DNA of 64,000 nucleotides from NCBI GenBank assembly GCA_013001595.1, contig JABDMH010000042.1:62001-126000 (forward strand), written 5' to 3'. The DNA comes from Saprospiraceae bacterium (lineage in GTDB: Bacteria > Bacteroidota > Bacteroidia > Chitinophagales > Saprospiraceae). A program made the translations under genes and the position numbers. Below are positions 38,366-46,519 of the stretch, in pieces. The first letter of the stretch is position 1. Each line of letters begins with the position of its first letter. The notes under the pieces are model-generated. The model saw only the letters and a list, made by a program, of their open reading frames with translations, made no database searches and was not told the origin of the DNA.

Positions 38366-38401
38366 GCCATGAAAGACTTCGCTACACTGCGCATCCATGG
38401 C
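38366..38401. repeat. Diverged palindromic repeat, unit 4
   Basis: GCCATG and CATGGC flank a centre that resembles (ACTTCGCTACACTGCG) the repeats beside tRNA-Ala. It lies beyond the tRNA terminator. Confidence 0.55.
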
Positions 38402-38490
38402 AAGTCTCTTCATGCTTTCCTGGGCATCCTTTATATATACGCTCCCATTTCGCTGCGATCATCCTTTCTTAATAAACTTAGTAGCAGGCA

Positions 38491-38523
38491 AAAGAAAAGG
38501 GCCTATGTGTGATACATAGACCC
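38491..38523 (-). terminator. Terminator of the tRNA transcript
   Basis: Minus-strand stem GGGTCTATGT/ACATAGGCCC (10 bp, one G-U), loop ATCAC, then TTTTCTTTT. It starts 8 bases after tRNA-Ala. Confidence 0.8.
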
Positions 38524-38530
38524 ATTATCG

Positions 38531-38604
38531 TGGAGAATACCGGATTCGAACCGGTGACCTCCTGGTTGCAAACCAGGCGCTCTAGCCAACTGAGCTAATC
38601 CCCC
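38531..38604 (-). tRNA. tRNA-Ala (anticodon TGC)
   Basis: A 74-base cloverleaf: acceptor GGGGGAT with ATTCTCC (two G-U pairs), D-arm GCTCAGTTGGCTAGAGC, anticodon arm CCTGG-TTTGCAA-CCAGG with TGC, T-arm ACCGGTTCGAATCCGGT, discriminator A. CCA is not encoded. It is second in a two-tRNA transcript. Confidence 0.95.
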
Positions 38605-38636
38605 ATGAAGGACTTCACTGCGTTTCGCCTTCATGG
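38603..38636. repeat. Palindromic repeat fused to tRNA-Ala 5' end (unit 3)
   Basis: Perfect 9-bp arms CCATGAAGG (38603-38611) and CCTTCATGG (38628-38636) around 16 bases. Two arm bases are the first two G of tRNA-Ala. Confidence 0.75.
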
Positions 38637-38654
38637 CAAGCCACATTGTCCTAC
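38610..38654. repeat. 45-bp direct repeat, copy 1
   Basis: Identical to 38673-38717, period 63 bp. It starts GGACTTCACTGCG and includes one arm of the tRNA-adjacent palindrome. Confidence 0.9.
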
Positions 38655-38672
38655 TTCATTTACTTTCTGCAT

Positions 38673-38717
38673 GGACTTCACTGCGTTTCGCCTTCATGGC
38701 AAGCCACATTGTCCTAC
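38673..38717. repeat. 45-bp direct repeat, copy 2
   Basis: Perfect copy of 38610-38654. Here the left palindrome arm is truncated to GCATGGAC, so this unit is incomplete. Confidence 0.9.
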
Positions 38718-38789
38718 CAGCTAGGCTGAGCCAAAGCTGGAGTCCCATTGCGAAATCTGCCTCAACAAACTTCTTTCTCGAGGGGCCTG

Positions 38790-38825
38790 CCATGTAGGCA
38801 TAGCCGCAGGCGACGTCCTACATGG
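38790..38825. repeat. Palindromic repeat fused to tRNA-Ile 3' CCA (unit 1)
   Basis: Perfect 9-bp arms CCATGTAGG (38790-38798) and CCTACATGG (38817-38825) around 18 bases. The terminal TGG is the complement of the tRNA-Ile CCA. Confidence 0.75.
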
Positions 38826-38899
38826 TAGTCCCGGGCAGACTTGAACTGCCGACCTCTACATTATCAGTGTAGCGCTCTAACCAGCTGAGCTACGGGACT
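38823..38899 (-). tRNA. tRNA-Ile (anticodon GAT), CCA encoded
   Basis: Cloverleaf with acceptor AGTCCCG/CGGGACT, D-arm GCTCAGCTGGTTAGAGC, anticodon arm CTACA-CTGATAA-TGTAG with GAT, T-arm GGCAG-TTCAAGT-CTGCC, discriminator A and an encoded CCA. It is first in the pair, 218 bases before tRNA-Ala. These two tRNAs usually sit in the 16S-23S spacer; here no rRNA is present. Confidence 0.95.
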
Positions 38900-38963
38900 A
38901 TCTAGTAGTTAAGTACTTTCTTTCAACATCTTTACGACTGCAACATTTTGCAAAAAGCGGTCG

Positions 38964-38971
38964 CAAATATA
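38964..38971 (-). promoter_or_regulatory. -7 box for the tRNA-Ile/tRNA-Ala transcript
   Basis: TATATTTG on the minus strand, 64 bases before tRNA-Ile, with a TTG 15 bases upstream, slightly tighter than usual. Confidence 0.55.
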
Positions 38972-38998
38972 AGAGTATTTTCAGAACAAGTATTTAGA

Positions 38999-40696: not shown

Positions 40697-42193
40697 CTAC
40701 CGGATCATTCCTACTGGCATAGCTTGGTCAAATCGTCCGGCTAGAATTGGTGTTTGGGCCATCTGAGTATATTCCCTTACCTGGCTATATACATATTTGT
40801 AAAGTTCTGCCACAGTAACGATCTTATCATGATCTTTGTCAGCTTTGCCCTTGAGGCCCTCGATTAGAAAGTGGCTAAAAACACCCTGGCGCAAACCCTT
40901 CGATTCTAGTGAAAATTCCTCCTTCTTAGAAGATAATAAGAATGCCGTGCCACCTGTACTTTCATTCAGCTTGGTGTATAACATATCAATGGATTCCGTC
41001 AATGTGGTTCTTGAGGCCAATAAACTTCCTGAATGGCAAGCATCGGCCACATATAACTTCTGTTTGGCTTTGCATGCTTGCAATCGATCTTTGACCTCGG
41101 TATAAGTCAGCGCATTTCGATATCCGTCTGAATCGATGGGTAGGAAAGAACCATTGATACCGTGTCCAGAGAAAAAGCAAAAAACTGCATCGTTTTCGCC
41201 TGCCCTTGCCACGAGATCATCAAGGGACTTCATGATATTGCGCTTGGTGGCACTCTCGTCAATCAGTATATTGATTTGCTCATCGGGAATGGCACCACCT
41301 TCTGGACTTTTTAAGAAAGCATATATGCGATAGGCGTCATCGTCCGTATATTTTAGGGATTCAAACTGCTCGTACCTAGATATCCCCACCAGCAGGGCAT
41401 AGATCTTATTCTCACCCTCTTGGCGCTCCTTCAACATCTTTTTGCCCTTACGAAATTTTCCAGCGTACCATGAGCCGTCCAAAATATCTCCATTCTGATA
41501 TTCCATTTTACCCTTTCCATGAGGTTGGTGTTTAAACCACTCTCCACTATACTTGTCTCCATTTTGATAGAGGCAAATGCCTTGTCCATGTGGAAGTCCA
41601 TTAAGAAACTCTCCTTCATATCGAGCTCCATTGCCGTAGGTGAACATTCCTAAACCACTTGGGCAATAATTTACGTTGCAATCTGGGAGCTCCTCATAGA
41701 CAATTTCTTCTTCGACACTTTCTTCTTCAACTAAATCATCTGGCTTTTCCCTTTCACCTTCTTGCTGTACAAGCTTGCCATCGGCCCAAATACCCACGAG
41801 GGTCATTTCATCTGACTTAAAGAGGCTACCTTCTCCATGGGGTTTGCTTTCCTGCCAGTAGCCTTCATATCGATTCCCATTCTTAAACTGATAGATCCCG
41901 TAACCTTGAAATTTATTGGCAACAAATTGCCCTGTATAGGTTTCTCCAGCCGAGAAGATCATTTTACCCTCTCCATCCTTGAGACTCCTCTTCCAATGTC
42001 CTATATACTTGTCGCCATTCGAAGAGATCAATGTACCCATGCCATGAGGCTTGCTCTGGGAGAAGTCACCAGAATAGACAGCACCATTTTGATAGCGATA
42101 AACTCCTTTTCCAGTTTTACAATTACCTTTGATGCATTGGGCGGCCCCGATTATCGGCAGACAAAGTAGGCATACGACAGTCCAGATCTTCAT
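40697..42193 (-). CDS. Secreted MORN-repeat protein with C-terminal caspase-like (p20) domain
   Basis: A 498-residue protein. Signal peptide to about residue 18 (IIGAAQ). Residues 30-130 hold about four MORN repeats (for example GAVYSGDFSQSKPHGMGTL, NRYEGYWQESKPHGEGSL), residues 140-170 are an acidic linker, 178-245 hold three more repeats, and 260-490 form a peptidase C14 domain. The catalytic dyad is intact: His344 in FFSGHG and Cys386 in ADACHSG. An active Cys protease of the metacaspase type is expected, cutting after Arg/Lys or Asp (not decided). MORN repeats usually bind lipids. It is transcribed alone. Confidence 0.88.
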   Translation of the reverse strand: MKIWTVVCLLCLPIIGAAQCIKGNCKTGKGVYRYQNGAVYSGDFSQSKPHGMGTLISSNGDKYIGHWKRSLKDGEGKMIFSAGETYTGQFVANKFQGYGIYQFKNGNRYEGYWQESKPHGEGSLFKSDEMTLVGIWADGKLVQQEGEREKPDDLVEEESVEEEIVYEELPDCNVNYCPSGLGMFTYGNGARYEGEFLNGLPHGQGICLYQNGDKYSGEWFKHQPHGKGKMEYQNGDILDGSWYAGKFRKGKKMLKERQEGENKIYALLVGISRYEQFESLKYTDDDAYRIYAFLKSPEGGAIPDEQINILIDESATKRNIMKSLDDLVARAGENDAVFCFFSGHGINGSFLPIDSDGYRNALTYTEVKDRLQACKAKQKLYVADACHSGSLLASRTTLTESIDMLYTKLNESTGGTAFLLSSKKEEFSLESKGLRQGVFSHFLIEGLKGKADKDHDKIVTVAELYKYVYSQVREYTQMAQTPILAGRFDQAMPVGMIR

Positions 42194-44607: not shown

Positions 44608-45642
44608 ATGTCTAAACTTAAGACCGGGACATTGCTTACCATCTTCACTTGGTTTACTGCATTGTACTGTCAGAATGACCCGGTTTTGTCAAACTCTCCT
44701 CTAAGTAAACCGGTCAAAGGACTGACCTTAGTAGCTCCTCCCCAACCATTCCAGACTGACCCAGCAATGGAACTCATATCAATAGGCGCAAACTGCGTGG
44801 CTATTATTCCATATGCGTACACACCTCCAAGACAAGCGAAGGTGCGCTTTGGATCTAAGCGTCAATGGTGGGGCGAACGACCAGAAGGTGTGAGAAAATC
44901 CATAGAACTGGTTCACGAACAGGGAATTCACGTTTTGTTAAAGCCCCAAGTTTGGAGTCCAGGATGGTGGACCGGTGACTACGATTTTCCGACTGATCAA
45001 GAATGGAGTAGTTGGGAAGGTCAATACACGGACTACATCACACATTTTGCTGAAATCGCTGAGGAAATGAATGTCGAGGCCTTTTGTATTGGTACCGAAT
45101 TCAAATTGGCAATCCGAAAGCGTCCTCAATTCTGGCATGACCTGATTCAACACATCAAAACCATATATACCGGCAGACTGACTTATGCCGCCAATTGGGA
45201 TAATTTCGAAAACATTCCGTTCTGGAGTGAACTAGACTACATAGGGATCAACGCTTACTTCCCCCTCTCAACTAAGGAAACGCCTTCAGTACAGGAACTA
45301 GTGAATGCGTGGCAACCGGTAAAAAAGAAGATTGCCGAGCACTATACAATTCATAAAACACCTGTTATTTTTACGGAGTATGGATATCTTAGCGTAGATG
45401 GGTGCGCTAACAAAACTTGGGAGTTGGAAGCTTCGATCGATCAAATTGCCATAAATGAAACTGCCCAGGCCAATGCAATTGATGCGCTACACACAGCCTT
45501 TGCATCTGAGCACTATTGGAAAGGAGGGTTTCTTTGGAAATGGTTCCCAGATATGCAAGGTCACGAAGGTTATCCTGAAAGAGACTATACTCCTCAGGGA
45601 AAAAAATCAGCACAAATTTTAGAAGCCTGGTTTAGTAAGTAA
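44608..45642 (+). CDS. Glycoside hydrolase TIM-barrel protein (GH113-like)
   Basis: A 344-residue exported or lipid-free secreted protein (signal-like TGTLLTIFTWFTALYCQ). The TIM barrel carries the proposed acid/base Glu164 in CIGTEFKL and nucleophile Glu257 in VIFTEYGY. WSPGWWTGDYDFP and YAANWDNFENIPFWSELDYIGINAYFPL also fit the GH113-like group (beta-mannanase relatives). Exact substrate unknown. It is 31 bases before panC, so probably in the same transcript. Confidence 0.8.
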   Translation: MSKLKTGTLLTIFTWFTALYCQNDPVLSNSPLSKPVKGLTLVAPPQPFQTDPAMELISIGANCVAIIPYAYTPPRQAKVRFGSKRQWWGERPEGVRKSIELVHEQGIHVLLKPQVWSPGWWTGDYDFPTDQEWSSWEGQYTDYITHFAEIAEEMNVEAFCIGTEFKLAIRKRPQFWHDLIQHIKTIYTGRLTYAANWDNFENIPFWSELDYIGINAYFPLSTKETPSVQELVNAWQPVKKKIAEHYTIHKTPVIFTEYGYLSVDGCANKTWELEASIDQIAINETAQANAIDALHTAFASEHYWKGGFLWKWFPDMQGHEGYPERDYTPQGKKSAQILEAWFSK

Positions 45643-45673
45643 GGTCTCGTCAATAATTCAAGAATACACTCCT

Positions 45674-46519
45674 GTGATACCAATATGTACAACTGTTGAT
45701 GGCTACAAAGCCCGACGTTCAATTTTCAAATCTGAAGGCCACCGAATTGCATTAGTTCCTACGCTAGGAGCATTGCATGATGGTCATCTCAAATTGATGG
45801 AGCATGCACAGAAGCTGGCAGATCGCCTTGTAGTCAGCATTTTTGTCAATCCCAAGCAGTTTAATGATGAGGAAGATCTAATCAAATATCCGCGACCCTT
45901 ACAACAAGATATTCACCTACTGAACCAGCTCGGTATTGACTTGCTCTTCCTTCCCAGTTCAGCTGAAATGTATCCAGCAGGGCATGCGGAGACCATCGAT
46001 GTTGAGCTAAGTCATCTGACAAGCCCTCTTGAAGGACGATATAGACCTGGTCATTTTGATGGCGTGATCGCCGTAGTACATCGCTTACTTGACATCATTG
46101 AGCCGGACTTTTTAGTCATGGGGCAGAAGGATTACCAGCAATTGACCATAATCAGAGAAATGATCAAGAGATTAGGCCTACCTGTAGACTTGGTTGCTCA
46201 CCCTACCATCCGCGAAGCTGATGGCCTTGCCATGAGTTCTAGAAATGTTCGTCTATCAAGCAAGGCTAGAAAACAAGCTCCAGCCATATACCGTATACTT
46301 CAAAAGGCCAAGGCCTTAAAAGATCAATACAGCCCAGCAGAAGCAGTGGCCAAATGTATCATCGAACTAGATGAGCGGATATTTCGGGTGGATTATTTTA
46401 AAATTGTTGACACGGACTCCCTGAAACCCCTGACCAGCTGGCGAATGCAGGGCAAAAATCTAGTTTGTGTGGCTGCCTGGTTGGGGGACGTCAGATTAAT
46501 AGACAATATCATTGTTTAA
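45674..46519 (+). CDS. panC: Pantothenate synthetase (pantoate-beta-alanine ligase)
   Basis: PanC joins pantoate and beta-alanine with ATP. The 281-residue protein has PTLGALHDGHLKLM (HIGH-type motif, about residues 29-42), FVNPKQFN, PLEGRYRPGHFDGV, GQKDYQQL and MSSRNVRLS (KMSKS-type). The GTG start at 45674 is used because the family begins about 25 residues before the HIGH motif and no ATG is available. panD follows after 142 bases. Confidence 0.94.
   Translation: MIPICTTVDGYKARRSIFKSEGHRIALVPTLGALHDGHLKLMEHAQKLADRLVVSIFVNPKQFNDEEDLIKYPRPLQQDIHLLNQLGIDLLFLPSSAEMYPAGHAETIDVELSHLTSPLEGRYRPGHFDGVIAVVHRLLDIIEPDFLVMGQKDYQQLTIIREMIKRLGLPVDLVAHPTIREADGLAMSSRNVRLSSKARKQAPAIYRILQKAKALKDQYSPAEAVAKCIIELDERIFRVDYFKIVDTDSLKPLTSWRMQGKNLVCVAAWLGDVRLIDNIIV

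What the first reader, a model, noticed from the sequence alone, without database searches (positions are those of the whole stretch)
38366..38825. Palindromic repeats fused to the ends of tRNA-Ile and tRNA-Ala
Four related 34-36-bp units (38366-38401, 38603-38636, a partial one near 38670-38700, 38790-38825) share CCATG...CATGG arms. One ends exactly on the tRNA-Ile CCA, another shares the first two G of tRNA-Ala. Two 45-bp perfect direct repeats lie between. Insertion targeted to tRNA ends, or hairpins that guide tRNA processing, would both be unusual.
Basis: seen in the sequence. Interest (0 to 1): 0.62.

Follow-up and report, generated by a model that had tools for sequence, protein, structure and literature searches.

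The report
Hairpin repeats fused to tRNA gene ends
A rare family of 34-base hairpin repeats sits flush against the ends of tRNA genes in some bacteria, looks like a small genomic parasite that settles at tRNA genes, and in several relatives lies beside the gene of a small DNA-cutting enzyme.

Summary
tRNA-Ile and tRNA-Ala (minus strand) are separated by 218 bp that begin and end with perfect 9-bp-stem palindromes: one starts on the Ile CCA, the other ends on the first two G of Ala. Congeners G003 and G004 have the same tRNA pair with 25-33 bp between and no palindrome.

The units form one interspersed family, found in 10 of 398 genomes of the bacterial family (model R1, E<=0.001). Of 11 clusters defined by exact arms in 199 genomes, 8 lie within 300 bp of a tRNA or tmRNA. 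At every flush junction seen, the same element end touches the tRNA. The Ile junction recurs in three genera, and only those tRNA-Ile genes encode CCA (3 of 3; 0 of 9 without the element). In four genera the element follows tRNA-Asn and precedes a small GIY-YIG nuclease ORF. Such ORFs in this family lie beside tRNA genes and broken tRNA copies (23 of 30 loci, all codirectional), as phage SegB does.

Best reading: a short non-autonomous palindromic element that inserts at tRNA boundaries, perhaps at cuts made by a SegB-like nuclease. The insertion mechanism is inferred; the nuclease link is correlative, and the window holds no demonstrable nuclease gene. RNA-processing hairpins are the main rival.

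The parts
38826..38899 (-). tRNA-Ile(gat), without CCA; CCA is 38825-38823
38790..38825 (+). palindromic unit A, 36 nt, perfect 9-bp stem; its GTCC...CATGG end abuts tRNA-Ile and supplies the CCA
   Evidence: R1 42.0 bits; used in building R1
38603..38636 (-). palindromic unit B, 34 nt, perfect 9-bp stem; its GTCC...CATGG end abuts tRNA-Ala and its last GG is G1-G2 of the tRNA
   Evidence: R1 52.0 bits; used in building R1
38530..38604 (-). tRNA-Ala(tgc)
38673..38699 (-). palindromic unit C, truncated after GTCC
   Evidence: R1 18.8 bits over 38669-38699, E 0.013
38367..38400 (-). palindromic unit D, degenerate (7 of 9 pairs), 130 bp downstream of tRNA-Ala
   Evidence: R1 29.6 bits, E 2.1e-5; not used in building R1
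38610..38654 (.). 45-bp direct repeat, copy 1 (contains most of unit B)
38673..38717 (.). 45-bp direct repeat, copy 2, identical (contains unit C)
38490..38523 (-). intrinsic-terminator-like hairpin and T-run downstream of tRNA-Ala
   Evidence: read
38962..38973 (-). TATATTTG promoter-like box upstream of tRNA-Ile, shared with congeners G003 and G004 (consensus recalled, not tested)
   Evidence: read

Best explanation
The units are copies of a short (34-36 bp) interspersed palindromic element, R1, found in a few genomes of this bacterial family (probably Saprospiraceae). It inserts preferentially at tRNA and tmRNA genes. When it sits flush, the same end (GTCC...CATGG) touches the tRNA. At tRNA-Ile it sits directly after the discriminator base and so supplies an encoded CCA; at tRNA-Ala it ends on G1-G2. 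It has no coding capacity and is therefore non-autonomous. Inferred mechanism: a small GIY-YIG homing-type nuclease, whose gene lies beside the same element in some relatives, cuts tRNA genes; the break is mended with capture or copying of the palindrome. The copy is tolerated because the hairpin lies outside the mature tRNA and is trimmed with the leader or trailer. Shown: the family, its tRNA association, the end polarity at flush junctions, recurrence at the same nucleotide in three genera, absence from congeners, and co-occurrence with one GIY-YIG subfamily. Inferred: movement, the nuclease's part, the repair step and the trimming.
For: Same family elsewhere: R1 hits 10 of 398 family genomes at E<=0.001. 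Association: exact CCATGNAGG...CCTNCATGG arms in 199 genomes give 11 clusters, 8 within 300 bp of a tRNA/tmRNA (one is a partial tRNA-Pro read by eye) and a ninth at 646 bp; the 9 other pattern matches (at least one CCGTG-type arm) have 0 of 9 tRNAs in their loci. In other taxa 1 of 75 comparable palindromes lies within 1 kb. Exact junction: tRNA-Ile followed at once by CCATGNAGG in G000, G017 and G186; CCA encoded in 3 of 3, and in 0 of 9 tRNA-Ile without the element (Fisher p 0.0045). Polarity: 7 R1-scored flush junctions (Ile x3, Ala x2, Asn x2), all with the GTCC end at the tRNA; G167 and G146 Asn agree by eye. Empty site: G003 and G004. Nuclease link: R1 in 4 of 4 GIY-YIG loci with >=53% identity to the query and 0 of 26 others. 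GIY-YIG loci lie beside tRNAs, 23 of 30 within 400 bp and all codirectional. Precedent: SegB cuts inside tRNA genes (PMC13096335, passages and section 10).
Against: 10 of 20 R1 clusters show no tRNA/tmRNA in the stretch fetched (three of these, in G296, include two near contig ends). Among the 8 clusters with no unit in the model, only 1 (G129:C160) has a tRNA. Six of 11 R1-positive genomes, the window's own included, have no GIY-YIG with >=50% identity to the subfamily. No GIY-YIG relic is supported in the window: best tblastn E 0.33 with one of four queries, none by profile. No target-site duplication was found. At 36-180 bp from a tRNA the orientation is mostly the reverse of the flush rule (5 of 6). 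Most genomes in R1's list are drafts or MAGs. In-house selection of the 17 model sequences by core similarity is partly by eye.
Confidence: 0.5

Rival explanations
1. RNA-processing hairpins: the units are selected features of the Ile-Ala precursor, guiding RNase III, RNase P or 3' trimming. The Ile-side and Ala-side units are inverted copies that can also pair with each other into one long stem joining the two tRNAs.
For: They lie in the transcribed spacer. The 375-nt precursor folds with z -5.4; in the window the two end units pair with each other (mean probability 0.89). Stems keep pairing through double changes (3 pairs, 6 cells), although the sequences were picked as palindromes. G009 has a different insert with inverted flanks in the same spacer.
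Against: Absent from congeners with the same tRNA pair. Long-range pairing is not conserved: G017 0.42, G186 about 0, and the gain over local folding in the window (-19.9) lies within the 60 shuffles (mean -11.1, lowest -24.4). CCA is kept in only 2 of 4 Asn junctions. Half the clusters are not at tRNAs.
Confidence: 0.2
2. REP/BIME-type element mobilised by a Y1 (RAYT) transposase.
For: Short imperfect-core palindromes in intergenic DNA; the own genome has two Y1_Tnp matches.
Against: No R1 match at E<=1 in the stretches around either Y1_Tnp place; 5 copies in the genome at E<=0.05, far fewer than typical REPs (recalled).
Confidence: 0.1
3. Composite insert of intervening-sequence type: the whole 218-bp spacer is one element with inverted ends, as in G009 where a 23S_rRNA_IVP ORF fills the same spacer.
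For: Inverted units at both ends of the spacer in G000 and G017; G009 spacer holds a PF05635 ORF.
Against: G186 has only the Ile-side unit; no ORF in the window spacer; single units occur alone at other tRNAs.
Confidence: 0.1
4. Chance or assembly artefact.
For: Inverted repeats of this length occur by chance; draft genome of 161 contigs.
Against: Same sequence and same junction in three genera.
Confidence: 0.02

Closest known systems
Phage SegB, free-standing GIY-YIG homing endonuclease of T-even phages (PMC13096335; passages and section 10 seen)
   Same: GIY-YIG nuclease genes beside tRNA genes with tRNA duplication; the paper reports cutting inside tRNA genes and a motif RAWTSGAAC, whose complement resembles the tRNA T-loop sequence (my comparison; GTTCGAATC is at position 54 of the window's tRNA-Ala; the window's tRNA-Ile does not match).
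   Different: Section 10 surveys phage and archaeal-virus genomes; here the ORFs are on bacterial contigs, about 85-95 aa, and one subfamily has palindromes. The window itself has no GIY-YIG gene at the finding.
REP/BIME palindromes with RAYT transposases (recalled)
   Same: Short intergenic palindromes.
   Different: No link to the Y1_Tnp places; low copy; tRNA-end junctions.
Rickettsia palindromic elements (recalled; one search gave a listing only)
   Same: Small palindromic repeats inserted in or at genes and tolerated.
   Different: RPEs are best known in open reading frames; here tRNA boundaries.
23S rRNA intervening sequences with four-helix-bundle ORF (PF05635)
   Same: Inserts in stable-RNA transcripts with inverted ends; found in the Ile-Ala spacer of G009.
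   Different: No ORF in the window spacer.

Membership tests
REP/RAYT | short palindromic intergenic repeat | tested here: met
REP/RAYT | repeats flank a Y1_Tnp (RAYT) gene | tested here: not met
   0 R1 matches at E<=1 in L003, L004, L067, L068
MITE (non-autonomous transposon) | interspersed copies without coding capacity | tested here: met
   20 clusters in 10 of 398 genomes
MITE (non-autonomous transposon) | target-site duplication | tested here: inconclusive
   none seen at the Ile or Ala junction; only two congeners serve as empty sites
MITE (non-autonomous transposon) | autonomous partner with the same ends | tested here: inconclusive
   GIY-YIG subfamily with R1 units in 4 of 4 loci at >=53% identity plus the query's own locus, but lacking in 6 of 11 R1-positive genomes
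SegB-like GIY-YIG cassette | GIY-YIG ORF at the locus | tested here: not met
   none at the window locus; present at tRNA-Asn loci of G019, G129, G146, G167
SegB-like GIY-YIG cassette | nuclease cuts tRNA genes | not testable with these tools
   needs biochemistry
23S-IVS type insert | four-helix-bundle ORF inside the insert | tested here: not met
   no ORF of 80 aa or more in 38605-38822 on the tRNA strand
Integrative element with tRNA attachment site | duplicated tRNA 3' end at the far side | tested here: not met
   no extra Ile or Ala copy in the window beyond mutual D-arm similarity

The most novel reading that the evidence does not exclude
Bacterial chromosomes of this family host a SegB-like system of miniature GIY-YIG nucleases that attack tRNA genes; palindromic elements, R1 among them, are captured at the cut or at the unpaired parts of tRNA genes (D-loop, variable loop, T-loop, 5' and 3' ends), leaving tRNA genes with hairpins fused to them and rows of broken tRNA copies. 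The window shows the scar of such an event after loss of the nuclease.
Probability: 0.3. Interest if true: 0.82.

Novelty: new variant of a known kind. Interest (0 to 1): 0.62.

Why it matters
tRNA genes are favoured targets of mobile DNA, but short palindromes placed to the nucleotide on the mature tRNA end, supplying the encoded CCA, are not something I found in print (searches; open-licence papers only). If the nuclease link holds, it would extend a tRNA-cutting homing strategy known from phages to bacterial chromosomes and give a natural set of tRNA precursors with hairpins fused to the 3' CCA or the 5' end, on which RNase P, RNase Z and trimming rules could be tested.

Tried and rejected
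REP/RAYT origin: no R1 match near either Y1_Tnp place. GIY-YIG relic at 38415-38501: tblastn E 0.008 in 1.6 kb with one query looked promising, but E is 0.33 over the window, other queries and the profile do not place it there: not claimed. CCA supply as a selected function: CCA kept in 2 of 4 Asn junctions only. Rule of polarity for all copies: holds for flush junctions only. Wide taxonomic spread: of 396 genomes of the order, the only R1 hit outside the family is G651 (E 7.4e-4, no tRNA), taken as chance; I do not know how many of the 396 lie outside the family. Weak R1 hits (E 0.009-0.036) in G012, G065, G132 and G207 have no tRNA nearby and were not counted. The five stretches set aside from it were L109, L114, L120, L133 and L147 (this bacterial family or Bacteroidetes).

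Full report
What is there. tRNA-Ile(gat) and tRNA-Ala(tgc) lie on the minus strand, in the order of an rRNA spacer but with no rRNA match in the window. Between them are 218 bp (38605-38822) beside the Ile CCA. On the tRNA strand this spacer opens with CCATGTAGG...CCTACATGG, whose CCA is the tRNA-Ile CCA, and closes with CCATGAAGG...CCTTCATGG, whose last GG is G1-G2 of tRNA-Ala. A truncated unit lies in the spacer, inside a 45-bp direct repeat, and a degenerate unit lies 130 bp beyond tRNA-Ala. Six units folded as RNA have z from -2.8 to -5.0. Perfect 9-bp inverted repeats are not in themselves rare in this window; the shared sequence and the exact placing are the finding.

A family of elements. 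A model (R1) of 17 units from seven genomes was run over genomes of the same bacterial family. It matches 13 of 199 genomes at E<=0.05 and 10 of 398 at E<=0.001. In the own genome it finds five places at E<=0.05: three here, one degenerate copy 66 bp upstream of a tRNA-Val, and one on contig C6 with no tRNA in that 6-kb contig. None of the five congeners matched. In 396 genomes of the order the only match outside the family is one weak one without a tRNA.

Association with tRNA genes. I use the exact-arm pattern CCATGNAGG-N14-20-CCTNCATGG, which does not depend on my choice of units. In 199 genomes it gives 11 clusters (my grouping of places). Eight are within 300 bp of a tRNA or tmRNA: G186, G000, G017:C51, G129:C46, G129:C155, G129:C191 (tmRNA), G146, and G165 (a tRNA-Pro cut by the contig end, read by eye). 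G167 is 646 bp from a tRNA-Asn. Two clusters on G017:C63 have no tRNA in 7.5 kb, but one is beside a GIY-YIG ORF. The nine other matches of that call, with at least one CCGTG-type arm, have no tRNA in any of nine loci. In other taxa 1 of 75 palindromes of a similar pattern lies within 1 kb of a tRNA (partial tRNAs not looked for there). By the R1 measure there are 20 clusters: 8 within 300 bp, 2 more (G129:C160, G167) beside a tRNA-Asn at 447-787 bp with weaker flush units, and 10 with no tRNA in the fetched stretch. Of the eight clusters with no unit in the model only one has a tRNA, so the association is strongest in the well-conserved copies. Clusters in one genome are not independent, and the p-values rest on a background of 0.8-1% that I estimated, not measured.

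Junctions and polarity. Seven R1-scored units are flush with a tRNA: Ile 3' end in G000, G017, G186; Ala 5' end in G000, G017; Asn 3' end in G019 and G129:C160. In all seven the GTCC...CATGG end touches the tRNA. By eye G167 and G146 tRNA-Asn agree (the G146 unit is weak, 16.7 bits). Units 36-180 bp away mostly point the other way (5 of 6). Among 12 distinct tRNA-Ile sequences held, the three with the element encode CCA and the nine without it do not; their base 74 is C, followed by T or G. Congeners G003 and G004 have the same promoter-like box and tRNA pair with 25 and 33 bp between. At tRNA-Asn the bases after the discriminator are CCA, CCA, CTA and CCC, and in the CTA case the other arm has the matching change. 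So the encoded CCA looks like a by-product of where the element sits.

The nuclease link. At tRNA-Asn in four genera the element is longer, carries an intrinsic-terminator-like hairpin in its loop, and is followed by a GIY-YIG ORF (Pfam PF01541). A search with the G167 protein found matches in 47 of 120 genomes. Of the 30 loci returned, 23 have a tRNA within 400 bp, always on the same strand; R1 units occur in the four loci with at least 53% identity and in none of the other 26 at E<=0.1. Two larger GIY-YIG genes of the own genome have no tRNA nearby. Among 11 further loci 9 have a tRNA. tRNA fragments lie beside the ORFs in 26 of 37 loci examined; 37 of 84 fragment ends fall at six positions (21, 22, 43, 44, 54, 55), against about 7 if uniform (ends within one locus are not independent, and similarity between different tRNAs may add some). 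Eighteen short inserts in 11 loci split tRNA copies there, most of them foldable and of other sequence than R1. Against the link: six of 11 R1-positive genomes, the own one included, have no close GIY-YIG relative, and no relic is supported in the window.

Mechanism. The nearest precedent is phage SegB, a GIY-YIG nuclease reported to cut inside tRNA genes and to amplify tRNA segments, with genes often near tRNAs in phages (PMC13096335, passages and section 10). Its motif RAWTSGAAC is, read on the other strand, like the tRNA T-loop; this comparison is mine. I propose that R1 units are captured at breaks in or beside tRNA genes and tolerated because leader and trailer are removed. The rival, a processing role, draws on the stable fold and on pairing between the two end units in the window (0.89), but that pairing is not shared by G017 (0.42) or G186 (about 0), and congeners do without the units.

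Verdict. The family and its tRNA association are well supported; movement and the nuclease's part are inferred.

Noticed in passing
L256-L285 (30 loci): Small GIY-YIG ORFs in this bacterial family lie within 400 bp of a tRNA gene in 23 of 30 loci, always codirectional, with many tRNA kinds.
   Followed up: partly
L264, L267, L269, L271, L275, L278: tRNA copies split at D-loop, variable-loop or T-loop positions by short palindromic inserts of other sequence families, without target duplication.
   Followed up: partly
L251 (own genome contig C158, about 45280-46020): tRNA-Pro(tgg) followed by two GIY-YIG ORFs with stops, each followed by a copy of the tRNA-Pro 3' half and a terminator-like hairpin.
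   Followed up: partly
L059 (G009), L097 (G129:C155): A four-helix-bundle ORF (PF05635 in G009; similar by eye in G129) sits between tRNA-Ile and tRNA-Ala, and between tRNA-Val and tRNA-Pro.
   Followed up: partly
L260 1-390 (G086): Three tandem 85-bp units each begin with the first 27 nt of tRNA-Met, ahead of the intact gene.
   Followed up: no
L091, L096, L097 (G129): GTGTGGGTGTG-type low-complexity stretches flank R1 units beside tRNA and tmRNA genes.
   Followed up: no
window 40697-42193 (-): Protein with MORN repeats and a caspase (Peptidase_C14) domain.
   Followed up: no
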